A DNA stretch of 64,000 nt from Halosimplex litoreum (GTDB lineage Archaea > Halobacteriota > Halobacteria > Halobacteriales > Haloarculaceae), in contig NZ_CP065856.1 of NCBI RefSeq assembly GCF_016065055.1, positions 1,177,836 to 1,241,835 of the forward strand, in the 5' to 3' direction. The notes under the pieces are model-generated. The model did not search any database. It saw only the letters and a program-made list of their open reading frames with translations, and was not told the DNA's origin. The position numbers and the translations under genes were made by a program. Shown here one piece after another: positions 12,911 to 27,331 of this stretch (position 1 is its first letter; each line of letters opens with the position of its first letter).

Positions 12911-13013
12911 CGAGTCGGTCCGGCGACCGCGGGTGCGGGGGCGCGTTTTCGCGGCCAGTTCGTGATTTTTGATTTGCATCATATTTTTACCTTTCGGCAG
13001 TCACCGCTCTAGC

Positions 13014-13694
13014 ATGAACGGGACGAGTGTCGGACGCCGCCGGTTTCTGTCGGCCGCTGCCCTGTCCGGTCTCGGTGGGCTGGCCGGCTGTCTGGGATCC
13101 GGCGGCGTCTCGGACGCGGGGAAACGTGACGTTTCGTCGAATCCTGTCGCCAGTTCGTTGGACGGGCGTCCCCGACTCGGTCCCGCGCGGTCAGAGACCG
13201 ACATCACGCTCGTGACCTTCGACGACCCCAGCTGTCCGTCGTGTGCCAGCTACCACGGCGGGACGTTCGGGGAGATCGAGTCGAAGTGGGTCGAATCCGG
13301 GAAGGCGACCGTGTACAACCGACTCTACCCGTACGTCGCCCCGTGGGGACGGACGGCTATCCACGCCCTCGTCGCGCTCAACCGCCGGCGACCCGAACAG
13401 TTCTGGTCGCTCAAGTCGAAGTACTACGCCAACCAGGACCGGCTCTCGGCGGACAACATCGTCGAGGAGACCAGGCGGTTCCTCCGGGACACCGATGTCG
13501 ACGCCGACGCCGTCGCGCGGGCCGCGGAGAACGGCGCCAACGAGTCGTACGTATCGACGGAAGTGTCCGACGGGGACGACGCCGGGCTCTACGGTGTCCC
13601 GCTCACCTACCTGTTCGAGGACGGCGAGTTCGTGACGACGATCATGACCGAGAGTTTCGGTACGTTCTCCAGTGCGGTCGAGAGCCATGGGTAG
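13014..13694 (+). CDS. DsbA-like thioredoxin-fold Tat lipoprotein
   Basis: 226 residues. N-terminus GRRRFLSAAALSGLGGLAGC combines a twin-arginine motif with a lipobox, so the protein is probably exported folded and lipid-anchored on the outside. The thioredoxin active site is DDPSCPSCASYHG near residue 80, and the cis-proline region is GLYGVPLTYLFEDG near residue 195. Likely a thiol-disulfide oxidoreductase. An AT-rich TATA-like element (atattttt, around 12980-12990) lies ~25-30 nt before the ATG. The stop overlaps the start of the membrane partner gene by 8 bp. Confidence 0.85.
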   Translation: MNGTSVGRRRFLSAAALSGLGGLAGCLGSGGVSDAGKRDVSSNPVASSLDGRPRLGPARSETDITLVTFDDPSCPSCASYHGGTFGEIESKWVESGKATVYNRLYPYVAPWGRTAIHALVALNRRRPEQFWSLKSKYYANQDRLSADNIVEETRRFLRDTDVDADAVARAAENGANESYVSTEVSDGDDAGLYGVPLTYLFEDGEFVTTIMTESFGTFSSAVESHG

Positions 13695-14277
13695 CCTCTC
13701 GCTGCCGACCAGTTCGACGGACTGGCGCCGAACCGCCCGGACGACTCGGGACGTGCTTCGCTCGCCGCAGTGGCTGGCGGTGGCGGTCCTCGGGGCCGTG
13801 TTGACGGTCACGACGTTCGCCGCGTTCAACAGCCCGGTGTACGTCCGACGGGTCGTCGTCGGCGGCGACCTCTCCGTGGTCGGCCGGGTTCAGGCGCTCG
13901 CCTCGCTGTATCCGCTCGCCGGCCCCAGCACCTACGTGCTACAGGACACGCTCCTGTACGTCATCGCGGCCGTCGTCGGGACGAACCTCGCGGTGGTCGG
14001 GTATCACCTGCGCCGAAACACGGTCGGGCTGCGAAGCGGGACCGGAGGCGCGTTCGGCGTCGTCGTTGGGACCCTCGGTGCCGGCTGTGCCCCCTGCGGT
14101 GCGGCGGTGTTCGCGGGTATCACGTCGGTGTTGGGTGTCACTACGGGGGTTTCCGCGCTCCCGTTGAAAGGCGCCGAGTTCCTAGTGCTTTCGCTGGCCG
14201 TGGCAGTTCTCTCGCTGTACTGGGTCGCCGACGGCGTCAGAATGGCGGACCGCGAGGTGTGCCCCGTCGACCCCTGA
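13687..14277 (+). CDS. Membrane protein with GCxPCG motif, partner of the DsbA-like lipoprotein
   Basis: 196 residues, four to five predicted transmembrane helices. A helix containing LGAGCAPCGAAVFAG carries two cysteines spaced CxxC next to glycines, suggesting redox or metal exchange in the membrane. ATG 13687 overlaps the DsbA-like gene end, so the two are co-translated. The same pairing recurs at 48425-49707 with a GCASCG motif. By analogy with CcdA/DsbD it could pass electrons to the lipoprotein, but it has no clear homology to those that I can see. Confidence 0.7.
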   Translation: MGSLSLPTSSTDWRRTARTTRDVLRSPQWLAVAVLGAVLTVTTFAAFNSPVYVRRVVVGGDLSVVGRVQALASLYPLAGPSTYVLQDTLLYVIAAVVGTNLAVVGYHLRRNTVGLRSGTGGAFGVVVGTLGAGCAPCGAAVFAGITSVLGVTTGVSALPLKGAEFLVLSLAVAVLSLYWVADGVRMADREVCPVDP

Positions 14278-14446: not shown

Positions 14447-14868
14447 TTAGCACTCTACAGTCTGTTCGGCCCATCGGTCCGAGTCGTTCTGATAGACCAT
14501 TTTTTGACCAGAATGCTGCCAGAGCACGGATCGCGGTCCATTTCGTAGGTTATCGTGTATGGAAATGAATCACACACTATCGTTGTTTCCCCCTGACTTC
14601 CCGATGAATCTATCGTCCCGATGCTATGACGGCAGACGACCGTTCCCTGTTCGTTTTGAACGACTACCGATACGTTTCGGATCGGTTCCCAGTCGCCGGA
14701 AACACCGACTTCCGTCTCGGCACGGATTTCATACCCGGACTCTACCTCACTCACATCGAGTGACCGGACGCTAATCGAGATATTCGAATCAGCCAGACAT
14801 CCCGCAACAGCTACCCCTGCGAGTCCCACTGCGGCCAGAGTTTCGCGTCGAGTCACTCGATCAGTCAT
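14447..14868 (-). pseudogene. Group B partner lipoprotein, frameshifted near the C-terminus
   Basis: Third member of the small lipoprotein family in the array (others 15728-16153 and 14979-15413). It has a lipobox signal (LAGVAVAGC), a beta-rich body with VGVSGDWEPIRNVSVVVQNE and the family motif SFPYTITYEMDRDPC. Compared with the intact copy, one base is missing in the A-run after LVKK (around 14500), so the open frame ends at 14455 with an unrelated tail. Restoring the base gives a tail ending VEC and a TAA at 14447, as in the intact copy. No protease tip precedes it. Could still yield a nearly full-length protein. Confidence 0.7.
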
Positions 14869-14978: not shown

Positions 14979-15413
14979 TCAGTCGTCACATTCGACGATC
15001 TCCTCCGTCGACCAATCTTCTTCCTCGACGTACACTCGCTTGTGAACGGTGGTATCCCCCCGGCACGGATCACGGTCTAACTCGTACGTGATCGTGTGAG
15101 GGAACTCGTCGCAGGTGAAAGTGACCGGATCGTATTCACCCGATTTTGTGAGGTCACCAATCGGATTCCGACAGACGACGACATCCGCCTCAATTTATAT
15201 TACAACTGATACGTTACGGAATGGTTCCCAATCACCGACGACTCCGACTTCCGGCGTCATCTCAATCGTGTATGTCCCATCTGATTCTGATACGTTGAGT
15301 GAGTCCGTCCCGAGACTCGCTTGAGACCCAGAATCAGGGACACAGCCAGCGAACGAAGCCATCGCTGCCGACACGACAGCGAGCAAACGTCGTCTCGTGA
15401 ATCGGTCAGTCAT
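14979..15413 (-). pseudogene. Group B partner lipoprotein with a premature stop
   Basis: Starts at ATG 15413 with a lipobox (VVSAAMASFAGC) and the family core VGVVGDWEPFRNVSVVI, then hits a TAA at 15197-15195. The same frame continues past it with family-matching sequence (VVVCRNPIGDLTKSG, EFPHTITYELDRDPC, ending IVECDD) to a stop at 14979. Alignment with the siblings puts a Gln at the stop, so CAA to TAA is the likely lesion. Its ATG overlaps the stop of the protease-tip fragment at 15406-15723, reproducing the tip-partner gene order. Confidence 0.8.
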
Positions 15414-15723
15414 TTTTCGATGGGATATCCTCAAAGTCTACCGTGAAGAGTTCCTCAATGCTGAAGACGAAGCGGTCCCCATCGAGGCTATCTGGTCGAC
15501 CAGTCGGTGCCATAATACTCCACACGGAGTCCGGGTTCTGGCTGTTGGGGAAGACGACCTCCTCCCGCGTTTCGTCGTTGCCTCCACCGACGCCAAACTG
15601 ACCGACACAGAAACTACCGCTGTAACACTCGGCGATGTGGCCGGACCCTTTGTCGTCGAGCCAGCCGATTCCCAGGCCGTGGCCGAGTTCGTACATAATC
15701 TCATTGCCTCGCGAATAATCCAC
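15406..15723 (-). pseudogene. C-terminal fragment of group B metalloprotease tip with His-to-Tyr zinc-site change
   Basis: About 105 residues matching the end of the tip encoded at 16146-18269: ELGHGLGIGWLDDKG, HIAECYSGSFCVG, a Met-turn-like WSIMAP and a FSIEELFTVDFEDIPS tail. The first zinc ligand of HELGH reads YELGH, so the site is broken. The rest of the tip and the linker are missing upstream. It directly abuts the intact partner gene that ends at 15728. A dead remnant of an earlier cassette. Confidence 0.8.
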
Positions 15724-15727
15724 GGTA

Positions 15728-16153
15728 TTAACACTCTACATTTTCTGGGGCCCAACTGTCTGTGTCGTCCTGATAGACCATCTTTTTGACTAGAATACTT
15801 TCCGAGCACGGGTCCCGATCCATCTCGTACGTTATCGTATGTGGGAAATGTTCACACGCCATTGTTGTTTCCCCCTGACTTCCCGATGTATTTATCGTTC
15901 CGATGTTTCGACGACATACAACTGTTCCCTGTTCATTTTGAACAACCACCGATGCGTTTCGGATTGGTTCCCAGTCACCGGAAACTCCAACTTTCGTCTC
16001 AACGTGGATCTCGTATTCGGACTCCATTTCGCTCACATTGAGTGATCGGACGCTGATCGAAACATTCGAACCAGGACCGTGACATCCCGAGACAGATACT
16101 CCCGCGAGCACCATAGCGGTCAGGATATCGCGTCGAGTTACTCGATCAGTCAT
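15728..16153 (-). CDS. Group B partner lipoprotein (putative immunity/inhibitor)
   Basis: Intact 141-residue copy. N-terminal Tat-like/Sec signal with lipobox (VSVSGC), then a predicted Ig-like beta sandwich: VGVSGDWEPIRNASVVVQNE, FPHTITYEMDRDPC and a C-terminal VEC. Its ATG at 16153 overlaps the stop of the upstream metalloprotease-tip gene by 8 bp, so the two are translationally coupled. I infer an outward-facing lipid-anchored protein that binds and neutralises the neighbouring tip. Base composition is lower in GC than flanking chromosomal genes. No known family was recognised. Confidence 0.75.
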   Translation of the reverse strand: MTDRVTRRDILTAMVLAGVSVSGCHGPGSNVSISVRSLNVSEMESEYEIHVETKVGVSGDWEPIRNASVVVQNEQGTVVCRRNIGTINTSGSQGETTMACEHFPHTITYEMDRDPCSESILVKKMVYQDDTDSWAPENVEC

Positions 16154-18269
16154 CTGTCGAAGGGATGTCCTCGAAGTCGATAGTCAGTACTTCTTCGATA
16201 CTGAACCCATACATATTATTCCTGATCGGTTCCGGATCATCGGTGGGGGCCATAACACTCCAGACCTCTTGTCTATTCCCTCCGAGGACTACTTCCTCGG
16301 GGGTTTCATCGTTGCCATCGCCAACACCGAAGGCACCGACACAGAAACTCCCGCTGTAACACTCGGCGATGTGGCCGGGCCCTTTGTCGTCGAGCCAGCC
16401 GATTCCCAGGCCGTGGCCGAGTTCGTGCATCGTCGTGCTCTTCAACGTCTCGACGTCGCTTAATTCTGGTTGGTCGGCCAGTATGACTGATCCATACGGT
16501 GCGGTCGGGATCAGATTGCGTTGGCCCGGTGAGCCAGTGTGACCTTCGAGTCCGTCGACGTCGGAATCGATAAAGGGGTCGTGAGTCGACAATATCGGTG
16601 TGTCAGCCGCGTAGTTCGTCGCGAACAGGATGTGATGTCTACTGGTGTCGTCGTGGTACTGATCTTCTACCTTGTCGAGTTCGTGCGCGTTCAACCCAGG
16701 AAGGGTGACTGTGCCACCGCAGGTAGGTCCGGGCCCAGCTATAGGCTGTTTGCAGACACTAGTTACGTTGGCAGTCGTGAGGCGGTCGTCCCGGTGGAAG
16801 ACGATATTGAGTCCATAGAGGGCATAGTTGTCCTCGATCGAGTCGAGCAGACGCTGCCCGCCGATGGTCTCGTTGTACGGGTTTTGTCCTTCGATCCAGT
16901 CCACCTCGACGTGCAGAGTCGTTCGCTGGTCCAGACTGGGTGTCGGCGTTTCCGGGACGGTCCCCCAGTGGAGTTCACCGATGTGGGTATTCGAGTGTTC
17001 GAGGTTGTTGTCGCCGTCGATGTCCGCACCTGTAATCGGACTCGAAACGTTGTGGATTCCGACCTGTTCGGAGACGATTTCGTCGCCTTCGATCCCATCT
17101 CCAGTTGAAAGATGCTCCTGGTACAGAACGACGTTATCAGACCACTCTACCCCGTAGACCCCTATCCAGCCGTCCCAGTACCCGTCACCGTCGGTGTCGG
17201 CATCCGCCGGGTCGGTCCCGTAACTCACGCTCTCGTCAGTCTTGACGACACTCCGGCCGTTGACCTTCGTCAGCCCGTGGACTTCTTGACCGTCGGTCAA
17301 GCCGTCGTCGTCCGTGTCGGGATCCCAGACACCCAGCTCGCCCGCGTTGAACACCTCCCAGTCGAGTTCCTCCCCGTTCGACAGCCACGTGTCGGTCCGG
17401 GTCGTCCCGTCCAGCGCCGTGAAGTCGAGCCGGTCGACGAAGTTCTTCCCGTCGTCGGGCCGCACGAAGTCGAAGTCGTCGGTCCGGTCGGACAACTCCA
17501 GCGACGACAATTGCTCGCGATTGTCGACGATGTGGGCGCCGATCGCCACCCTGGCACGGCCGTCCGCTTCGAGACGTTCGACGAGGTCCTGATGTCGCTC
17601 GGTCAGTTCGTACGTTACCTCGGCTCTGGGGTCGGTAAACGTGGTCGCTTTCTCGACGCCGTCGACGAGACCGTCACCGTCGGTGTCACGGTCCAGCGGA
17701 TCCGACGCGACGTGTAGACTTCCGAGCGTTCGCCCACTCTTCGGTGGATCACTCTTCGAACGATTGTAGTACCGGAACGGGTCGCCGTTGGCCGTCTCGA
17801 CGACGGTGATGTTCCACCCTCTGAACTCGTCGTCTAATGCGCCATCACCGTCGGTGTCCGGGTCCGTCGGATGTGTCGTCGAGTTGGCGACCAACCGCGC
17901 TGTCTCGCGCGTCTCGTTCGCGGGTAATCGCCGCACCGAGTACTCCTGGCTGTCCAACACACCGTCGTCGTCAGTGTCCGGGTCCTGCCAGGACGTGTTG
18001 AACGTCTGTGTCGGTCGAATCCGCCCGGTCGTACGGCCCGAATCCGTCGCCGCCCCGTGCTCGTACGTGTAGGTCTTGTTCTCCCAGCCGTTCCACAGCC
18101 CGTCACCATCCGTGTCCGTCCGCGTCGTCACCTGCAACCGCGTCGAGACGTTCGCCGACACCGCCCGCACCGTCACGTCAGTGCCCGGCTGGAACGCGTC
18201 GAACGAGACATATTGGCGCACCGTGCCGACCGTCCCCATGGTCAGATTGCACTCCTTCGAGAGCGGCAA
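16146..18269 (-). CDS. Orphan cassette B: DxDGDG-repeat linker plus HELGH metalloprotease tip, lacking the N-terminal part
   Basis: 707-codon open frame from a weak TTG. Residues ~8-500 match the linker of the 1622-residue protein (from its residue ~938): GTVGTVRQY, DTDGDGLWNGWENKTY, DTDGDGYWDGWIGVYG. The last ~300 residues are different, with MHELGHGLGIGWLDD at about residue 614, a WSVMAP Met-turn-like motif and FSIEEVLTIDFEDIPS. There is no signal peptide or promoter: homology begins abruptly at ~18247 right after the previous partner gene. Probably a silent donor or an unexpressed tip, unless translated by re-initiation. Confidence 0.75.
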   Translation of the reverse strand: MPLSKECNLTMGTVGTVRQYVSFDAFQPGTDVTVRAVSANVSTRLQVTTRTDTDGDGLWNGWENKTYTYEHGAATDSGRTTGRIRPTQTFNTSWQDPDTDDDGVLDSQEYSVRRLPANETRETARLVANSTTHPTDPDTDGDGALDDEFRGWNITVVETANGDPFRYYNRSKSDPPKSGRTLGSLHVASDPLDRDTDGDGLVDGVEKATTFTDPRAEVTYELTERHQDLVERLEADGRARVAIGAHIVDNREQLSSLELSDRTDDFDFVRPDDGKNFVDRLDFTALDGTTRTDTWLSNGEELDWEVFNAGELGVWDPDTDDDGLTDGQEVHGLTKVNGRSVVKTDESVSYGTDPADADTDGDGYWDGWIGVYGVEWSDNVVLYQEHLSTGDGIEGDEIVSEQVGIHNVSSPITGADIDGDNNLEHSNTHIGELHWGTVPETPTPSLDQRTTLHVEVDWIEGQNPYNETIGGQRLLDSIEDNYALYGLNIVFHRDDRLTTANVTSVCKQPIAGPGPTCGGTVTLPGLNAHELDKVEDQYHDDTSRHHILFATNYAADTPILSTHDPFIDSDVDGLEGHTGSPGQRNLIPTAPYGSVILADQPELSDVETLKSTTMHELGHGLGIGWLDDKGPGHIAECYSGSFCVGAFGVGDGNDETPEEVVLGGNRQEVWSVMAPTDDPEPIRNNMYGFSIEEVLTIDFEDIPSTDD
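17091..17483. repeat. Long direct repeat, copy 1 (linker of cassette B)
   Basis: About 390 bp almost identical to 19664-20056 (offset 2573), with only scattered substitutions and no gaps seen. It encodes the segment from LDGTTRTDTWLSN to DGYWDGWIGVYG. Such identity in the middle of divergent tips suggests recent duplication or gene conversion. Confidence 0.85.
17567..18247. repeat. Long direct repeat, cassette B copy of the full gene's linker
   Basis: About 680 bp colinear and highly similar to 23807-24487 (offset 6240), covering the region from NLTxGTVGTVRQY to EVTYELTE. The upstream limit near 18247 is abrupt and marks the left junction of the orphan cassette. Confidence 0.8.
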
Positions 18270-18321
18270 GCAATTCTGAGGCCCAGTAGTCGGTTCGCCT
18301 CTGATCGTGGGTTTCCCGCGG

Positions 18322-18786
18322 TCAGTACTCTGGATCGTAGTCCGAATATGTCCTGTATCGGTGGATTCCTTCGTATTTATCGGTCAAACGTAAACCGATA
18401 GCGTCCCCAGCCGCGTTAGACGGTTGACTCAGTGAGTCGTACTTGAAATTGATATAGTGGGGGCGCTGGGGGAGTACAACGCTGAAATTGTGGTACCCCG
18501 TTCCACGTTCGTTGGCCATCGTTCCGAGGCTGTGGCTCTCGATGACACGCCTATTAGCGGAGAGGAAGACGGCTTTTACGCCTGTGAGTTTTACACCATC
18601 TCCCTGCCCCTGAATAGAGAGAGTTACTGTCATGTTGATCCCGGTATCCATCTGAGAGATTCGTTCCACATCGCCTTCCAGTGTCCACGATTGGGGACTG
18701 GCGTGACACCCAGCTACAACGACCAATAGACAGATCCCTGCTGTGAGGCTTATATCGTTACGAACCATCGTTTTCAACTGTGGCAA
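18322..18786 (-). CDS. Group A partner lipoprotein (putative immunity/inhibitor)
   Basis: 154 residues, or ~148 if the second Met (MVRNDISL) is used. Signal with lipobox CLLVVVAGC, then a beta-rich domain: VKLTGVKAVFLSANRRVIE, SLGTM, RPHYINFKYDSLSQPS, GLRLTDKYEG and a Tyr-rich end RYRTYSDYDPEY. It is clearly homologous to the partner of the full-length gene (21976-22419), which shows VVLNGVKVVFLTQN, RPYYINLRYDS and RYVTYAEYTATY. The start overlaps the end of the preceding tip gene by 29 bp. Predicted membrane-anchored binder of that tip. Confidence 0.75.
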   Translation of the reverse strand: MPQLKTMVRNDISLTAGICLLVVVAGCHASPQSWTLEGDVERISQMDTGINMTVTLSIQGQGDGVKLTGVKAVFLSANRRVIESHSLGTMANERGTGYHNFSVVLPQRPHYINFKYDSLSQPSNAAGDAIGLRLTDKYEGIHRYRTYSDYDPEY

Positions 18787-20106
18787 TGTTGCGCAGTTCG
18801 ACGGATAGTAGCTCCTCGATACTATATGCCATGTACGAACCGTTCATCGGGTGGGCAGCCGCTTCATCTACCCATCCGGAAGACATGACGCTCCATCTTG
18901 GATCGTCGAATACGGGCCTTCCAACGGCTTCGAGAGTCCGATCTACTGGAGGGTTCTCACTGCCGCTGTATACTTCACCGAACGGATTGAGTCCCACACC
19001 ATCATCTTTCCGTCCAGCACCGATGATATGGCCGACTTCGTGTACTATCGTCTTTTGTAGATGATGTGCACGCTTGTGATTTGGATTCTGAGACTGGTCG
19101 TGATCCGCGGTGAATATGAGTACGCCCCATCCAAATCCAGCACTGTTCCCGTTTGTAGAAGCGATCCCCTCATCAAAACTTTGAACGATGAATTCAGAGT
19201 TATTCCCACCTTCCGTTGTCACGAACATATAGAGTTTCGACGGCTCGTCGTGATACATCTGCTCCAGAGCGACGCTCTCTTTGTAATCTATCGGCAAGCC
19301 GACTTTCCCATATTGCAGTAGTTTAGTCCGGAGATAAGAGCGGGAAAACGTATCGGAGCTTGTGAACGTGATGTTGAATCCGTATAACGCGTAGTTGTTG
19401 CTAACGTTCTCGAACAACTGTTCGAACCCGATCGGATGAGCGGAAGCGTTCTCGTACCGGTCGACTTCGACAGCGAGGTCGAGGTCGGGTTCCGAACCTG
19501 CGTCTATCGGATCTGCCGAATGGCCCGCTTTGCCGTCCCAGTACGTCTCGCCCAGATGGATATTCGAGTGTTCGCGTTTGCCGTCGCTGTCGACATCTGC
19601 ACCTGGCACTGGACTCGAAACGTGATGGGTGCCGATCTGTTCGGGCACTACTTCTTCACCTTCGATCCCATCTCCAGTTGAAAGATGCTCCTGGTACAGA
19701 ACGACGTTATCAGACCACTCTACCCCGTAGACCCCTATCCAGCCGTCCCAGTACCCGTCACCGTCGGTGTCGGCATCCGCCGGGTCGGTCCCGTAACTCA
19801 CGCTCTCGTCGGTCTTGACGACACTCCAGCCGTTGACCTTCGTCAGCCCGTGGACTTCTTGACCGTCGGTCAAGCCGTCGTCGTCCGTGTCGGGATCCCA
19901 GACACCCAGCTCGCCCGCGTTGAACACCTCCCAGTCGAGTTCCTCCTCGTTCGAGAGCCACGTGTCGGTCCGGGTCGTCCCGTCCAGTGCCGTGAAGTCG
20001 AGTCGGTCGACGAAATTCGTCCCGCCGTCGGGCCGCACGAAGTCGAAGTCGTCGGTCCGGTCAGTCAACACGAGATCGTCGACGCGCCCGCGCCGCTCGA
20101 CGATGT
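18758..20106 (-). CDS. Orphan cassette A2: linker plus HEVGH metalloprotease tip, no N-terminus
   Basis: The frame is open from 20347, but homology to the linker starts only at ~20105 (DIVERRGRVDDLVLTDRTDDFDF), so codons upstream are junction sequence overlapping the previous partner gene. Linker repeats DPDTDDDGLTDGQEV and DTDGDGYWDGWIGVYG are followed by a tip closely related to the full-length gene's tip: NASAHPIGFEQLFENVSNNYAL, TIVHEVGHIIGAGRKDDG, RWSVMSSGWVD, YSIEELLSVELRNIATV. No signal peptide or obvious start codon. The cognate partner follows at 18322-18786. Confidence 0.75.
19664..20056. repeat. Long direct repeat, copy 2 (linker of cassette A2)
   Basis: Nearly identical partner of 17091-17483. 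The two cassettes sharing it carry different tips, so the repeat is exactly where recombination could swap tips. Confidence 0.85.
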
Positions 20107-20108
20107 CC

Positions 20109-20681
20109 TTACCATGCCACCTTGCTGCCTGTTCTAGCCAAGGTAAGGTCCATAGTACGGAGTGCCGCTGGATTGAGCAGTCCAGTATTCGGCGAGGTCT
20201 TCGTTGACGTTCTGTGAAATTTCGGGAATTCTGCCTTCGAAGAGGCCCATTTTGACTGGTAGTTGGGCTGCCCGTCGAACATTCCCGCTTTGTAGTAGTA
20301 GAGGGTTTGAATATTAGACCGGGACCAAAAGTCAGGAGAGTCGACAATCACGTACTTTGGCGCGGTTTCGACCCGTACCGAAACGTTTAGTCTACTATTG
20401 AGTTCTCCGACTCCCCGTTTCTCTAATAATTCTCCGTCTTCAGAGTAGAAATAGACCGAGATATTTTCGATCCCTGGTTCCGAGTAAGGATTTGGGATAA
20501 TCGCACCATGCATCTGAAATCGATCTCCAACCATTTCGAACTGGCCGTCAAACTCAACATCGGTCCCAGGTCCGGGGGAGATCGCGGCAGAAAACAGGAC
20601 GAGGTAGATGACGGCAGCGACTACCAGTGCCAAGCAACCGAACAGTAAGTACCGAGGGGGGATATCTGTATCAGCAGTCAT
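20109..20681 (-). CDS. Group C partner protein, N-terminally membrane-anchored
   Basis: 190 residues. A single N-terminal transmembrane helix (YLLFGCLALVVAAVIYLVLFS) replaces the lipoprotein signal of the other partners. The body has the same strand pattern as the others (IENISVYFYSEDGELLEKRGVGEL, APKYVIVDSPDFW) but little sequence identity. Its ATG overlaps the stop of the group C tip gene by 4 bp (ATGA). The last ~50 residues look like junction sequence created where cassette A2 begins, so the native end may lie upstream. Predicted partner of the group C tip only. Confidence 0.65.
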   Translation of the reverse strand: MTADTDIPPRYLLFGCLALVVAAVIYLVLFSAAISPGPGTDVEFDGQFEMVGDRFQMHGAIIPNPYSEPGIENISVYFYSEDGELLEKRGVGELNSRLNVSVRVETAPKYVIVDSPDFWSRSNIQTLYYYKAGMFDGQPNYQSKWASSKAEFPKFHRTSTKTSPNTGLLNPAALRTMDLTLARTGSKVAW

Positions 20682-21880
20682 GGCTTTTCGATACTCAGAA
20701 GCTCTTCGATAGAGTAAACGTAGTACCCGACACTATCGGATTCGAAGACTGTTCCGCTCCTCCAACCTTTACTCATCACACTCCACCGAGCACCCGGGCG
20801 ATTGGCCAGTGTCTCGGTTGTTGAGTCCCCATCTCCGCCGGTGTATACTTCTGAGAACGGCAACGGACCGACATGGTCGTCAGCCAAACCGATGTCGAAC
20901 GAGTGGCCCAGTTCGTGCAGTTCTGTTTTCGCTGCGTAGAGCTCAGTCTCTGTATTATACGGAGAAACGGAGACGTGAGCCTGTCCGTTCTTGTAGTCGT
21001 CCTGTGCGAGCGTTTGCGCGTAGATCATGTGTCCGTTGAGTGGTATCGGTGCCGGCACCACTGAAGCGTCGAGATTATATCCGGTTGAATCTCCTGCAAT
21101 ATTATTTTTCTTCACCACAGATAAGTGGAGATCTGTATTCATGTCGGACTCGATACCAGTGAGAGCAGCTACCTCGGTGACGGTATCATCGCGTTTGAGG
21201 TCCAGATCGATCCCGTAAAGAGCGAGATTTTGTTCGATCCCCGCTTCCCAGACACTGTTGTTGAGGCGGTTTTCTGGAAGTCCAGCGATGAAGTCCGCTT
21301 CGACGGATATGCTGAGGTTCGGTGTGCTACCCCCTGTAGGATCCGTATGCCACTGCAACTCACCGATGTGAACGTTCGAGTGTTCCCGAGTACCATCCCG
21401 GTCGATGTCTGCGCCGATCGAAGACGACTGAAGCATGTCGTGAATGCCGACCTGCTTTTGAACGATTTCAGTACTATCGATCCCACCGCCAGTCAGCAGA
21501 TTTTCACGATAAAGCACAACATTGGTTGTGAACTCCGAACTCACGTTGTAGACTCCGATCCAGCCATCCCAGTACCCGTCGCCGTCCGTGTCCGGATCCG
21601 TCGGATCCGTGTCGTAGCTCACCGACTCGTCTATCTCGACGAGATCGGAACTCACTGCTTCTGTCACATCGTGAACTTCCTGACCGTCGGTCAACCCGTC
21701 GTCGTCAGAGTCCGGATCCCACGGGTTGACGCTCCGCTTAAACACGAGCGATTTGTCGACCTCCTCTTCGTTCGACAGCCACGTGTCCGTCCGCACGACC
21801 GAATCCAGCGCGTGGAAGTCCACTCTGGCCAGGTCCTAGCCGAACGTCGGCCGGACGAAATCGAAGTCGTCGGTATCGGT
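20678..21880 (-). pseudogene. Orphan cassette C: linker with nonsense codon plus HELGH tip
   Basis: Homology to the linker of the full-length protein begins near 21880 (TDDFDFVRPTFG), and an in-frame TAG at 21838-21836 replaces a Gln codon of the full gene (FGQDLARVDF). Downstream the frame is open from GTG 21823 for 381 codons: DPDSDDDGLTDGQEV, DTDGDGYWDGWIGVYN, then a third kind of tip with LHELGHSFDIGLADDH near codon 303 of that frame, RWSVMSKGW and YSIEELLSIEKP. Without a signal peptide or promoter, it could only act as a recombination donor; donated 3' sequence would be intact. Confidence 0.75.
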
Positions 21881-21975: not shown

Positions 21976-22419
21976 TCAGTACGTCGCCGTGTACTCCGCG
22001 TAGGTGACGTACCGGTACTGGCTTTCTCCACTACCCATGAGCCGTAATCCGACGACGCCGCCGTCAGCGTCGGTCGGTCGATCGACGCTGTCGTACCGTA
22101 GGTTGATGTAGTACGGTCGCGTCGGCGTGGTAACGGTAAACGACCGACCCCCACCCCAGTCGATCTCGACGGTTCCTAGGCCGGTTTCGTTGAGGACAGT
22201 TTCGTTTTGAGTGAGGAACACGACTTTGACGCCGTTCAGAACCACCGGACTCGCGTTCCCCTCCAAGGTGAACTGAACGGTCGTCGAGTGCCCGTCGTCG
22301 GTCTGGACACTGTCTGAGACTTCCGGAGCGACTGTCCACCCCTTCGATTCGTTCCCGACCTCGTGGCAACCGGCAGTCAAGACGAGAAGAACGACGAGAT
22401 ACTTCGCGTAACGAGTCAT
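21976..22419 (-). CDS. Group A partner lipoprotein of the full-length protein (putative immunity/inhibitor)
   Basis: 147 residues with a typical lipoprotein signal (YLVVLLVLTAGC), then a ~120-residue beta-rich domain ending RYVTYAEYTATY. Begins 10 bp after the stop of the 1622-residue gene, so both are expected on one transcript. Homologous to 18322-18786, whose neighbouring tip is also homologous. The location on the outer membrane face is where a secreted self-protease would have to be blocked. Function inferred from context only. Confidence 0.75.
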   Translation of the reverse strand: MTRYAKYLVVLLVLTAGCHEVGNESKGWTVAPEVSDSVQTDDGHSTTVQFTLEGNASPVVLNGVKVVFLTQNETVLNETGLGTVEIDWGGGRSFTVTTPTRPYYINLRYDSVDRPTDADGGVVGLRLMGSGESQYRYVTYAEYTATY

Positions 22420-22429
22420 CGTCTATGTA

Positions 22430-25400
22430 CTAGTCCCTCCTCACAGTCGCGATGTTATTGAATTCGATCGTCGATAGCTCCTCGAGGCTGAATGCGATGT
22501 AGTTCCCGTTCATCGGTGGGGCGTTGAGGTCGTCAACCCAGCCGCGAGTCATCACGCTCCAACGTGGGTCATTGTACCCGGGTATTCCGGAGTATTCCAA
22601 AGTCTCGTCAATTCCGTTTCTCTGAGCACCGCTGTATATTTCGCCAAATGGATTGAGTCCCTTCCCATCGTCTGCTCTACCCGCTCCGAGTATGTGCCCG
22701 ATTTCGTGGGTGATGGTCTTCTGGAGATGAGTCGAACGACTGTGGTTTCTCGATCCGTTGTGATCCCGTGTAAACACGAGGACACCCCATCCGAATCCAC
22801 CCACATCGTTTCCGTTCGTCGAAGCGATGCCTTGGGTACCGTTGAAGCTCGGAGCGAGGTACCCGGAGTTCTCGGCGCCTTTCGTTGTCACGAAGGTGTA
22901 GAGCTTAGACTTATCATCGTGCTCGATCTGCTCCAAAGCGACACTCTCTTCGTAACCTATCGGTAGTCCCACCTTTCCGTAGGGGAGTAGTTTGGTTCGA
23001 AGGCGGGAGCGGGAAAACGTATCAGACATAGTGAACGTGACATTGAATCCGTACAGTGCGTAGTTGTTGCTAACGTTCTCGAACAATTGTTCGAACCCGA
23101 TCGGATGGGCGGAAGCGTTCTCGTACCGGTCGACTTCGACAGCGAGGTTGAGGTCGGGTTCGGATCCTGCGCCCATCGGATCTGCCGAATGTCCCGCTTT
23201 GCCGTCCCAGTACGTCTCGCCCAGGTGGATGTTCGAGTGTTCGCGTTTGCCGTCGCTGTCGACATCTGCGCCCGGTACCGGTCCTGAAACGTGATGTGTG
23301 CCGACCTGTTGTGGGACCACCTCGTCGCCTTCGACCCCGTCACCGGTGTAGAGATGTTCCTGATACAGGATCACGTTGTCGCTCCAGTCGACACCGTACA
23401 CCCCGATCCAGCCGTCCCAGTACCCATCGCCGTCCGTGTCCGGGTCCGTCGGATCCGTCTCGTAACTCACCGACTCGTCCATCTCGACGAGGCCGGCACT
23501 GACGGTTTCCGTCACCCCGTGGATTTCCTGCCCGTCGGTCAGCCCGTCGTCGTCCGAGTCAGGATCCCACGGATTGACGCTCCCGTTGAACACGACCGAT
23601 TTGTCGACTTCTTCCTCGTTCGAGAGCCACGTGTCCGTCCGCACGACCGAATCCAGCGCGTGGAAGTCCACTCTGGCGAGATCTTGCCCGAACGTCGGCC
23701 GGACGAAGTCGAAGTCGTCGGTCCGGTCGGTCAACTCCAGCGACGACAATTGCCCACGGCGCTCGACGATATGCGCGCCGATAGCCACACCCGCACGGCC
23801 ATCCGCTGCCAGATCCTCGATGAGGTCTTGATGCTGCTCGGTCAGTTCGTACGTTACCTCCGACTTGGGGTCGGTGAACGTGGTCGCTTTCTCGACCCCG
23901 TCGACGAGACCGTCGCCGTCAGTGTCACGGTCCAGCGGGTCCGAAGCGACGTGTAGGCTCTCGACCGTTCGTCCGCTCTCCGGTGGATCGCTTTTCGAAC
24001 GGTTGTAGTACCGATACGGGTCGCCACTTGCGGTTTCGACGACGGTAATGTTCCAGCCGCGGAACTCGTCGTCCAGCAAGCCGTCGCCGTCGGTATCGGG
24101 CATCGTCGGATGGGTCGTCGAATTGGCGACCAGCCGCACCGTCTCGCGCGTCTCGTTCGCGGGCAGTCGCCGCACCGAATACTCCTGACCGTCGGCAACC
24201 CCGTCGTCGTCAGTGTCCGGGTCTTTCCAGGACGTGTTGAACGTCTGGGTCGGCCGTATCCGCCCGGTCGTGCGGCCCGAATCCGTCGCCGCCCCGTGCT
24301 CGTACGTGTAGGTCTTGTTCTCCCAGCCGTTCCACAGCCCGTCGCCATCGGTGTCCGTCCGCGTCGTCACCTGCAGCCGCGTCGAGACGTTCGCCGACAC
24401 CGCCCGCACCGTCACGTCAGTGCCCGGCTGGAACGCGTCCAGCGGAAGGTACTGGCGCACCGTCCCGACCGTCCCCAGCGTCAGATTGTACCGTTCGGTA
24501 ATCTGACGGCGATTCCGCGGGTCGGCCGCCTGCTCGTACCCGCTCACGACCACCGTCGCGTTGGGGTCGATCCCCGTCTGCTCGGTCTGGTAGGTCAGGT
24601 CCAGCCCGCGGTCGCCGACCGCCGACGGCACGTCGTAACTCCATTCGAGCGAGCCGTTCATCGCGCGGTCGGAACCGCTGGCCTGCTCCCGCGTCTCGGG
24701 CACTTCGATGGTGATCGGCTCGTCCACGTCGAGACTGACGTTGCGCGGGTCAGTCGCCTGGCCGGTGAGGAACTGCCAATCGGTGATTTCGCCCGTCGTC
24801 AGCGGTTCGAGTCGCGCGGCACTGCCGAACGCCGACGCGACGGTAAACGTCGAGTTGACCAGCCCGCCGCGGTAGGCGCCGCCGTCGGTGTTTTGCCCGT
24901 TCCAGGTCCAATCGGGGTCCATCCCGTCGTCGGAGTAGTCGTCTTTCGCGGGTAGCTGGTCGTCTCTGACGACCCACCGGCCCTCTTCAGTCGGAAGCCC
25001 CGAGATATCGAGCGATGCCGCGCCACCCGACCCGTCGTTCGGAAGATCGTGAACCGTGACGAGGCTCAGTCCGTTGGGGCCCGCCCAGAAGAACAACCGA
25101 CTCGTATCACTCGCCGCGACCGGGAGCGGCGAGTTGAGTTGCGCGCTCCCGTAGTTGTAGAATTTCTGGATCGATTGACCGTTACTCAGCGGCACGACCG
25201 AGAACTCCCGGTCGCCCTGCCGGACCACGATCTCCCTGGCGTCCGGCGTCCCGCCCAGCGTCGCCGTCGCGTTCGTCACGTTGCAATCGCCCGAACACGA
25301 GAGCCGACCCGCGTCCCGTTCGGTCTCGAGATCGACCGGCGCGACGCCGTCGACCCGGCGAGCCGACCGCCAGCTGTCCACGTCGATGACCGTGTAGTAC

Positions 25401-27298
25401 GAGAACGAATCGGTCGTCACCGTCGCCGTCCCGTTCGCCCGGTCGAACGTAGCGCCAACGTTGTGCCAGTCGCCGCCGCGCGTCCCGTCCCACTTGTACA
25501 CCGCCAGGTCGTCGTACTCGGACGGGTCGCGCGAGTTCGCGATCGCCAGTGTGAGCGTCGCGCTTTGGAAGCTCGTCCGGTTCTCGATGTGGACCGTTGG
25601 CCCGGCGCTGACGGTCTCGTTGCCCAGCGGACTCGGCGTCTCCTCGACCGTGACACCGCTGGCGACGTTCCCCGCGCCCGTTACCGACAGCGAGACGCCG
25701 ATCGTCTCGTTCTCGATCCGCGTCGTGTACGTCTCGTTGCCGTCGTCGACGCCGTCGCCGTCGGTATCGGGGTCGAGCGGGTCGGTCTCGAACGGCGCGG
25801 TCGGCTCCTCGGCGTCGGTGAGGCCGTCGCCGTCCGAATCGGCGTCGAGCGGGTCCGTCCCGTTGGCCAACTCGGCAGGGTCGGAGACGCCGTCGGCGTC
25901 GCCGTCGGCGAACAGCGGCGCGGTTCCCTCGGCGACCTCCTCGGCGTTGGTCAGTCCGTCGCCGTCGGGGTCCTCCGCGCCGTCGACGGTCCCGTCGTCG
26001 TCCGTGTCCGCCACGAGTGGGTCGGTCTCGGTCAGGAACTCCTCGCGGTCGGTCAGGCCGTCACCGTCCGTGTCGGCGTCGAGCGGATCGGTCCCGATGT
26101 CGTGTTCGGTCAGTGTCCCGAGCGAGTCGTCGTCGAAGTCCGCCCGACCGTCGATCGTCCCGTCGTCGGCCTCGTCGGCGCCGGTCGCCGACGAGTCGCT
26201 GTCGGGGTCGAGCGGGTCCGTCCCGAGGACTTCGGTCTCGTAGGTCGCGTTCAGGCCGTCACCGTCGAGCCTGAGTGTCGCGTTCGCGCCGGTCGTTCCG
26301 TTGTTCCCGGCGACGGTCACACGAACGCGGTTCCCGCCCGCGTCGAGCGGCACCGAGACGGCGACCGGGAGACTTCGGTTCTCGGTGACGGTCAGGCCGG
26401 AGAGGTTCCGTTCGGCGACGCGCTCGCCGTCGACTGCGGCCGCGAGCGTCTCCAGCGAGACCGGACCGTCCGCCGAGACGTTCACGCCGACGGTGTAGTT
26501 GCCGGGTTCGCTCCGGTTCCGGATCGGGTCGTTTCTGGAGAGGACCGTCGCCGAGACGTTCCCGTCGAGCCGTCCGTCGGTCTCGTTGCCGTCACCAGCG
26601 CCAGTCTCGTTGCCCTCGCCGATGGTCCCGACAGGCAACGTCGCGTTCGTCCGCTCGACCGCCCGTTCGACGACGAAGTGGGCCTGTCGCCATGTCTCTC
26701 GCAACTGCCGGATCGCGCTCGCACGCAACCGGAGCGCCCGCCGTCCGTCTACGTCGCGCGCCCGAGACATCGTCTCCTCGGCGCGGTCGTAGGTCCGCTC
26801 GGCGTTGTCCAGATGCGCCTCCATACTGCGGACGATCCCCTCGTTGTCGATCGCTTCGCGAGAGTCGTTCAGCAGCCGTCGGGCATCGGTTATCTCCTGG
26901 GAGGCAGTCCGGTTATCCATCCGCACGACAGCGTCTGCGACCGCCGTCGCGTTGGCCTCCGTGTCGGTCCCGGCGAACGCCCGCAACGCTTGGATCCCCT
27001 TCGCGTCGTGATTGAACAGTTTCGTCGAGGACGCGCGGACCGGTCCGCGATAGTGTCGCCGCGAATCGTTGAATCGGCCGACAGCGCGGTCGCGCGCCGA
27101 CTCGAACCGTCCCTTCGTCGCGGTCAGTTCCCTCGTGTCGTCGACCGCCTGTGCCTTCAGTGACTGGGGCGCGTTGTCCGCCGTGATTGATTCGTTGCCA
27201 CCCGCCTCGACCACCCCGACCGAGACCAGCGGCGCGAACGTCGCCGTCACCAGCAGGTAGGCAGCCACCACTGCCCCCAGGCGACCAATAGATCCCAT
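22430..27298 (-). CDS. Large secreted DxDGDG-repeat protein with C-terminal metalloprotease-like domain (polymorphic-toxin-like)
   Basis: 1622 residues from ATG 27298. In order: Sec signal peptide (residues 1-33); Arg/Glu-rich helical, probably coiled-coil region (~45-215); beta-rich segment; six or more DxDxDG calcium-type (thrombospondin-3-like) repeats (~360-510, e.g. DTDGDGLTDREE); a large beta-rich middle; further repeats (DTDGDGLWNGWENK, DSDDDGLTDGQE, DTDGDGYWDGWIG, ~960-1290); and a variable tip with THEIGHILGAGRADD at ~1530, Met-turn-like WSVMTRGW and SLEELSTIEFNNIATV. HExxH plus the Met-turn suggest a zinc peptidase; the usual third metzincin His is absent, with DD nearby instead. 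Its partner gene follows at 22419. Confidence 0.8.
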   Translation of the reverse strand: MGSIGRLGAVVAAYLLVTATFAPLVSVGVVEAGGNESITADNAPQSLKAQAVDDTRELTATKGRFESARDRAVGRFNDSRRHYRGPVRASSTKLFNHDAKGIQALRAFAGTDTEANATAVADAVVRMDNRTASQEITDARRLLNDSREAIDNEGIVRSMEAHLDNAERTYDRAEETMSRARDVDGRRALRLRASAIRQLRETWRQAHFVVERAVERTNATLPVGTIGEGNETGAGDGNETDGRLDGNVSATVLSRNDPIRNRSEPGNYTVGVNVSADGPVSLETLAAAVDGERVAERNLSGLTVTENRSLPVAVSVPLDAGGNRVRVTVAGNNGTTGANATLRLDGDGLNATYETEVLGTDPLDPDSDSSATGADEADDGTIDGRADFDDDSLGTLTEHDIGTDPLDADTDGDGLTDREEFLTETDPLVADTDDDGTVDGAEDPDGDGLTNAEEVAEGTAPLFADGDADGVSDPAELANGTDPLDADSDGDGLTDAEEPTAPFETDPLDPDTDGDGVDDGNETYTTRIENETIGVSLSVTGAGNVASGVTVEETPSPLGNETVSAGPTVHIENRTSFQSATLTLAIANSRDPSEYDDLAVYKWDGTRGGDWHNVGATFDRANGTATVTTDSFSYYTVIDVDSWRSARRVDGVAPVDLETERDAGRLSCSGDCNVTNATATLGGTPDAREIVVRQGDREFSVVPLSNGQSIQKFYNYGSAQLNSPLPVAASDTSRLFFWAGPNGLSLVTVHDLPNDGSGGAASLDISGLPTEEGRWVVRDDQLPAKDDYSDDGMDPDWTWNGQNTDGGAYRGGLVNSTFTVASAFGSAARLEPLTTGEITDWQFLTGQATDPRNVSLDVDEPITIEVPETREQASGSDRAMNGSLEWSYDVPSAVGDRGLDLTYQTEQTGIDPNATVVVSGYEQAADPRNRRQITERYNLTLGTVGTVRQYLPLDAFQPGTDVTVRAVSANVSTRLQVTTRTDTDGDGLWNGWENKTYTYEHGAATDSGRTTGRIRPTQTFNTSWKDPDTDDDGVADGQEYSVRRLPANETRETVRLVANSTTHPTMPDTDGDGLLDDEFRGWNITVVETASGDPYRYYNRSKSDPPESGRTVESLHVASDPLDRDTDGDGLVDGVEKATTFTDPKSEVTYELTEQHQDLIEDLAADGRAGVAIGAHIVERRGQLSSLELTDRTDDFDFVRPTFGQDLARVDFHALDSVVRTDTWLSNEEEVDKSVVFNGSVNPWDPDSDDDGLTDGQEIHGVTETVSAGLVEMDESVSYETDPTDPDTDGDGYWDGWIGVYGVDWSDNVILYQEHLYTGDGVEGDEVVPQQVGTHHVSGPVPGADVDSDGKREHSNIHLGETYWDGKAGHSADPMGAGSEPDLNLAVEVDRYENASAHPIGFEQLFENVSNNYALYGFNVTFTMSDTFSRSRLRTKLLPYGKVGLPIGYEESVALEQIEHDDKSKLYTFVTTKGAENSGYLAPSFNGTQGIASTNGNDVGGFGWGVLVFTRDHNGSRNHSRSTHLQKTITHEIGHILGAGRADDGKGLNPFGEIYSGAQRNGIDETLEYSGIPGYNDPRWSVMTRGWVDDLNAPPMNGNYIAFSLEELSTIEFNNIATVRRD
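23807..24487. repeat. Long direct repeat, full-length gene copy
   Basis: Counterpart of 17567-18247 within the intact gene, at the start of the linker shared by all cassettes. Crossing-over here would replace everything downstream of residue ~938 by cassette B. Confidence 0.8.
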
Positions 27299-27331
27299 GA
27301 CACGAACGAGAACCGCCCCGGTACAAAACAC

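What the first reader, a model, noticed from the sequence alone, without database searches (positions are those of the whole stretch)
17091..20056. Near-identical 390-bp linker repeats between cassettes that carry different tips
17091-17483 and 19664-20056 are almost identical base for base while adjacent tip sequence differs completely. 17567-18247 similarly matches 23807-24487 of the full gene. This points to recent duplication or gene conversion and gives a direct route for tip switching by homologous recombination in a polyploid archaeon.
Basis: seen in the sequence. Interest (0 to 1): 0.7.

Follow-up and report, generated by a model that had tools for sequence, protein, structure and literature searches.

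The report
Archaeal toxin-tip cassette swapping locus

Summary
The repeat is real: 17091-17483 and 19664-20056 agree at 384/393 bases (97.7%). The second pair is off by one base and only 87.4% identical. The identity exceeds protein constraint (four-fold sites agree 58/62 between orphan cassettes B and C, 17/34 between the full gene and B) and ends at a sharp mosaic junction (19651/19652, permutation p 1e-4). It is younger than the split from Halosimplex pelagicum.

The locus is most likely a haloarchaeal polymorphic toxin system. A secreted TSP3-repeat stalk carries a C-terminal zincin-like tip. Every intact tip but one in about 30 Haloarculaceae loci is followed within about 25 bases by an exported, mostly lipobox-bearing protein, the putative immunity protein. 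Tip and immunity distances covary (rho 0.56); tip and linker distances barely do (0.15). The same cassettes occur in other order in sister species. A second, smaller exchange point appears to lie at the HExxH codons.

The near-identical pair joins two orphan cassettes, not the full gene, so by itself it does not load a new tip. Toxicity, immunity and switching within one culture are inferred, not shown. Polymorphic toxins are a known kind; this looks like a variant of it.

The parts
22430..27331 (-). Full-length gene A (1633 aa; likely start ATG at 27298): signal-like hydrophobic N-terminus, helical region, TSP3 repeats, linker, C-terminal HExxH tip
   Evidence: start supported by the matching MGSTGRVGAVVA remnant in H. 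carlsbadense L047
23240..24640 (-). Linker of the full gene; nucleotide conservation between genomes peaks at DTDGDGYWDGWIGVY (23396-23440)
22430..23239 (-). Tip A, zincin-like HEIGH...DD...YSG...WSVM
21976..22419 (-). Putative immunity A, lipobox protein, predicted Ig-like beta sandwich
   Evidence: 85% identical to the H. carlsbadense copy
20678..21874 (-). Orphan cassette D: linker from 21874, tip D 20678-21385; 88% to the full gene over 21548-21874
   Evidence: tip ~75-78% to the H. carlsbadense tip on the 761-aa ORF
20109..20681 (-). Putative immunity D, membrane-anchored, overlaps the tip D stop
18758..20110 (-). Orphan cassette B: mosaic; distal linker C-like (19659-20062), then A-like from 19651 down through the tip
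18322..18768 (-). Putative immunity B, lipobox protein
16146..18252 (-). Orphan cassette C: linker from 18252, tip C 16146-17000; immB-C adjacency conserved in H. pelagicum (85%)
15728..16153 (-). Putative immunity C, lipobox protein
17086..17489 (.). Near-identical linker block in C (395/404 to 19659-20062)
19659..20062 (.). Near-identical linker block in B; mosaic junction at 19651/19652
15406..15735 (-). Mini-cassette: only the tip C-terminus, homology starts at the active site (15550-15696 vs 16284-16430, 87%); HExxH is YELGH here
14979..15437 (-). Frame-broken immunity-like gene following the mini-cassette
14455..14868 (-). Further immunity-like lipobox gene (80% DNA to immunity C)

Best explanation
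A haloarchaeal polymorphic toxin locus. One full gene makes an exported TSP3-repeat stalk ending in a zincin-like protease tip. The gene downstream encodes an exported Ig-like lipoprotein that most likely protects the producer from that tip at its own surface. Three orphan linker+tip+immunity cassettes, plus tip/immunity remnants, lie downstream as displaced or stored modules without signal peptide or stalk. Tip+immunity units are acquired and exchanged by homologous recombination in the conserved linker DNA; the 97.7% block is a recent conversion or duplication tract between orphans B and C. A second, smaller exchange point probably lies at the HExxH active-site codons, swapping the tip C-terminus together with the immunity gene. 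Shown by sequence: anatomy, pairing, mosaicism, linker-bounded shared modules between species. Inferred: toxicity, immunity, direction of exchange, secretion route.
For: Every intact tip but one (L062) in the surveyed Haloarculaceae loci is followed within about 25 nt by a 138-190 aa exported protein, nearly all with a lipobox. Mantel rho: tip-immunity 0.56 (p 0.0005), tip-linker 0.15, immunity-linker 0.11, n=28. One genome (G073) has three full genes whose stalks are mostly 80-100% identical until about column 1000-1100, then fall to ~27-48% or less at the tips. H. carlsbadense at the same site (between a sulfite-oxidase-like gene and a DHH gene) has tip D + immD on the long ORF and a tip A fragment + immA downstream, the reverse of the window. 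G009/G036 share a module ~99% identical over ~1.4 kb, with both ends in TSP3 linkers. B/C mosaic and silent-site data. Tips and immunity genes are 49-59% GC against 68% for the stalk and 67% for the window, as expected of imported modules. Fourteen of 23 tip fragments begin at profile positions 165-187, around HExxH at 179.
Against: No experiment shows toxicity or immunity. The tip fold was not confirmed: model pLDDT 51, no significant PDB match. Tip C pairs with different immunity families in the window and H. pelagicum although the tips are 85% identical; the difference is confined to the tip's last ~50 aa. The clustering of fragments at HExxH may be partly a local-alignment effect. Correlations share related sequences, so p values are approximate.
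Confidence: 0.8

Rival explanations
1. Plain tandem duplication and divergence of a secreted protease gene, without exchange between lineages.
For: The modules are tandem and on one strand; tips A and B are ~70-74% identical.
Against: Tips C and D are closest to tips in other species while linkers are closer within the genome; linker-bounded shared modules between genomes; lower GC of tips and immunity genes; abrupt mosaic junction.
Confidence: 0.08
2. The pair is a nutritional or surface-remodelling protease with a dedicated inhibitor or chaperone, diversified for substrate range and not for conflict.
For: HExxH tips look like exported zincins; the partner is exported and could be an inhibitor or folding partner.
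Against: Pairing with rapid diversification, orphan arrays without export signals and sister-species reshuffling are the pattern of toxin-immunity systems described in PMC3482391 and PMC3150448; a nutritional role would not explain stored tips that cannot be exported.
Confidence: 0.15
3. The near-identical B/C linker is an assembly artefact.
For: Repeats of this kind are prone to misassembly.
Against: The blocks are 97.7% identical, not 100%, lie in a single-contig genome, and the C copy is syntenic and orthologous in H. pelagicum.
Confidence: 0.03

Closest known systems
CdiA-CT/CdiI and Rhs-CT/RhsI orphan modules (PMC3150448; PMC3967940)
   Same: Full gene followed by orphan tip+immunity fragments that keep varying lengths of upstream homology; in Salmonella, recombination across a 522 bp, 95% identical block is the proposed and partly evidenced way of loading the orphan tip.
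   Different: No RHS or haemagglutinin repeats found by Pfam here; stalk is TSP3; tip is protease-like and the partner is exported, suggesting action outside the cytoplasm.
Archaeal polymorphic toxin systems (Makarova et al. 2019, mBio 00715-19, not readable here; PMC8416519 cites it and names arCOG07560 multidomain secreted proteins 'often associated with PTS')
   Same: Predicted haloarchaeal secreted multidomain proteins linked to polymorphic toxins; this family may be among them.
   Different: I could not check whether this tip/immunity family or its exchange points were described.
VARTIG, Thermococcales (PMC8416519)
   Same: Large surface protein with a C-terminus that varies by recombination between species.
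   Different: VARTIG has Ig-domain tips and no recombination within loci was detected; here the tip is HExxH protease-like and intralocus conversion is visible.
Metzincin peptidases (M12B reprolysin-like, matrixin, M54)
   Same: HExxH with following G and a W-S-V-M Met-turn-like motif; weak profile hits (best E 0.005).
   Different: No H/D at the +10 third-ligand position; a conserved DD lies at +12/+13; all hits below curated cut-offs.

Membership tests
Polymorphic toxin system | Conserved N-terminal part with variable C-terminal tip among homologues | tested here: met
   G073 paralogues: stalk mostly 80-100% aa, tips mostly 27-48% or less
Polymorphic toxin system | Specific gene immediately downstream of each tip | tested here: met
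   (gene position and covariation only, not protective function)
Polymorphic toxin system | Standalone tip/immunity cassettes with homology upstream of the tip | tested here: met
Polymorphic toxin system | Exported trafficking region | tested here: inconclusive
   TSP3_bac E 2e-17; signal-like start judged by eye only, no predictor run
Polymorphic toxin system | Tip is toxic and partner protects | not testable with these tools
   needs expression and competition assays
Rhs/CDI | RHS/YD or filamentous haemagglutinin repeats | tested here: not met
   no such Pfam family at E up to 1
Rhs/CDI | VENN or DPxGL boundary motif | not tested
   no scan was made
Metzincin | HExxHxxGxxH/D zinc motif | tested here: not met
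   HExxHxxG present, no H/D at +10; DD at +12/+13; four full tips have EExxH
Metzincin | Met-turn and zincin fold | tested here: inconclusive
   WSVM conserved; model too weak to place the fold

The most novel reading that the evidence does not exclude
A two-level modular exchange system in archaea: whole tip+immunity cassettes swap through TSP3 linker DNA, and smaller units (tip C-terminus + immunity) swap through the active-site codons, leaving arrays of mini-cassettes as a record; the weapon is an extracellular protease countered by membrane-anchored inhibitors.
Probability: 0.35. Interest if true: 0.75.

Novelty: new variant of a known kind. Interest (0 to 1): 0.6.

Why it matters
Archaeal polymorphic toxins were said in PMC8416519 (2021) not to have been characterised experimentally; since then injection-system toxin-immunity pairs have been tested in one haloarchaeon (PMC11566945). 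This locus, with relatives in cultured Halosimplex, Haloarcula and Halomicrobium, gives concrete tip/immunity pairs, a mapped recombination tract and sister-species rearrangements, so tip switching and surface-acting antagonism in archaea can be tested directly. The genes are annotated as hypothetical proteins in Halomicrobium mukohataei.

Tried and rejected
Plasmid DNA search of the locus (megablast): no match. Tip protein in phages: none; in plasmids only the Halomicrobium mukohataei megaplasmid at 30%. PADLOC: none. Rfam, tRNA: none, so no tRNA- or RNA-linked integration site was seen. Fold of tip: Foldseek and VIA gave no credible match on a weak model, and no metzincin was among the 50 VIA rows shown; this says nothing against it. 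Immunity fold: Ig-like sandwich, best Z 9.8, 2.4 A over 95 residues, to a domain of Brr2; generic, no functional inference drawn. Testing whether the tip C-terminus alone covaries best with immunity: not supported (partial correlation 0.23 vs 0.35 for the N-half). In H. pelagicum the ~4.9 kb where the full gene would lie reads N, so it could not be compared; it was not pursued. Makarova 2019 was not held.

Full report
OBSERVATION. The first pair of repeats is real: 17091-17483 and 19664-20056 agree at 384 of 393 bases, best block 404 bp with 395 matches. The second pair is off by one base; in the right register it is 87.4% identical, with one near-exact tract at about 18034-18200. In the distal linker, four-fold degenerate sites agree 58/62 between orphan cassettes B and C but 17/34 between the full gene A and B and between A and C, so protein constraint cannot explain the identity. 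B is a mosaic: C-like down to 19652, A-like from 19651 through the tip (max-chi2 198, permutation p 1e-4). B and C are each about 90.5% identical to the single H. pelagicum C linker, so the B/C event is younger than that split. Because C keeps its neighbour immB in H. pelagicum, C is the likelier donor (inference).

ANATOMY. All elements are on the minus strand. The 1633-aa gene has a hydrophobic signal-like start, TSP3 repeats (Pfam E 2e-17), a linker and an HExxH tip. Downstream follow immunity A, cassette D + immunity D, cassette B + immunity B, cassette C + immunity C, a tip-C-terminus mini-cassette with a frame-broken immunity gene, and one more immunity-like gene. The orphan cassettes begin close behind the preceding immunity gene and, read by eye, lack a signal peptide. 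Tips and immunity genes are 49-59% GC, linkers 57-65%, stalk 68%.

RELATIVES. The protein has strong homologues in 35 of 146 Haloarculaceae genomes; the tip profile hits 19 of 391 Halobacteria genomes, 16 of them in this family. The locus sits at the same chromosomal place in H. pelagicum and H. carlsbadense. H. carlsbadense carries tip D and immunity D on the long ORF (which has lost the stalk but keeps the first codons) and a tip A fragment with immunity A behind it, the reverse of the window order. Each intact tip but one (L062, where none was found) is followed at -23 to +13 nt by a 138-190 aa exported protein. Over 28 cassettes, tip distance correlates with immunity distance (rho 0.56) but hardly with linker distance (0.15). 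One genome with three full genes shows conserved stalks and divergent tips. Two Haloarculaceae genomes of one genus share a tip+immunity module at ~99% whose both ends drop off inside TSP3 linkers. The DNA of the linker motif DTDGDGYWDGWIGVY is the best conserved part of the cassette between genomes (84%).

A SECOND EXCHANGE POINT. Fourteen of 23 partial tips start at profile positions 165-187, around HExxH at 179. In H. pelagicum vs H. aquaticum identity rises from ~86% (linker) to ~95% (tip N-part) to ~99-100% from just after HExxH through the immunity gene. In the window, tip C matches H. pelagicum until about 130 nt past HExxH, after which tip end and immunity gene are different. This suggests that the C-terminal tip part and immunity gene can be replaced together at the active-site codons. 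A global test that the C-terminus alone best predicts immunity was not supportive, so this remains a proposal.

MECHANISM AND LIMITS. Best reading: polymorphic toxin-immunity modules exchanged by homologous recombination in the linker, as evidenced for Salmonella Rhs (PMC3967940) and proposed for CDI (PMC3150448). Efficient gene conversion is known in Haloferax volcanii (PMC8223754) and polyploidy in several haloarchaea (PMC4056108), but neither was tested for this species. The near-identical pair itself is orphan-orphan and cannot re-tip the full gene; A-D, A-C and A-B homologies could. The exported partner suggests action at the cell surface. The immunity model is an Ig-like sandwich; the tip fold is unresolved. 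No toxicity or protection has been shown.

Noticed in passing
L059, L061, L064, L043:10146-12779: Four full tips have EExxH in place of HExxH, two of them on long genes; they may be inactive or use another metal arrangement.
   Followed up: no
L047:13356-15638: H. carlsbadense long ORF at this site keeps the first codons of the full gene fused directly to a late region: the stalk has been deleted.
   Followed up: partly
12969-14277: A thioredoxin/DsbA-like lipoprotein gene and a CxxC-type membrane protein gene lie between the array and the DHH gene; this stretch was not compared with the sister species.
   Followed up: no
L069:6032-9089: Four tandem tip-C-terminus mini-cassettes, each with its own lipobox or membrane-anchored immunity-like gene; one unit with its immunity gene is ~98-100% identical to one in L054 (another species).
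   Followed up: partly
L043:1245-6122: Reads N in the collection exactly where the H. pelagicum full gene would lie; left alone.
   Followed up: no
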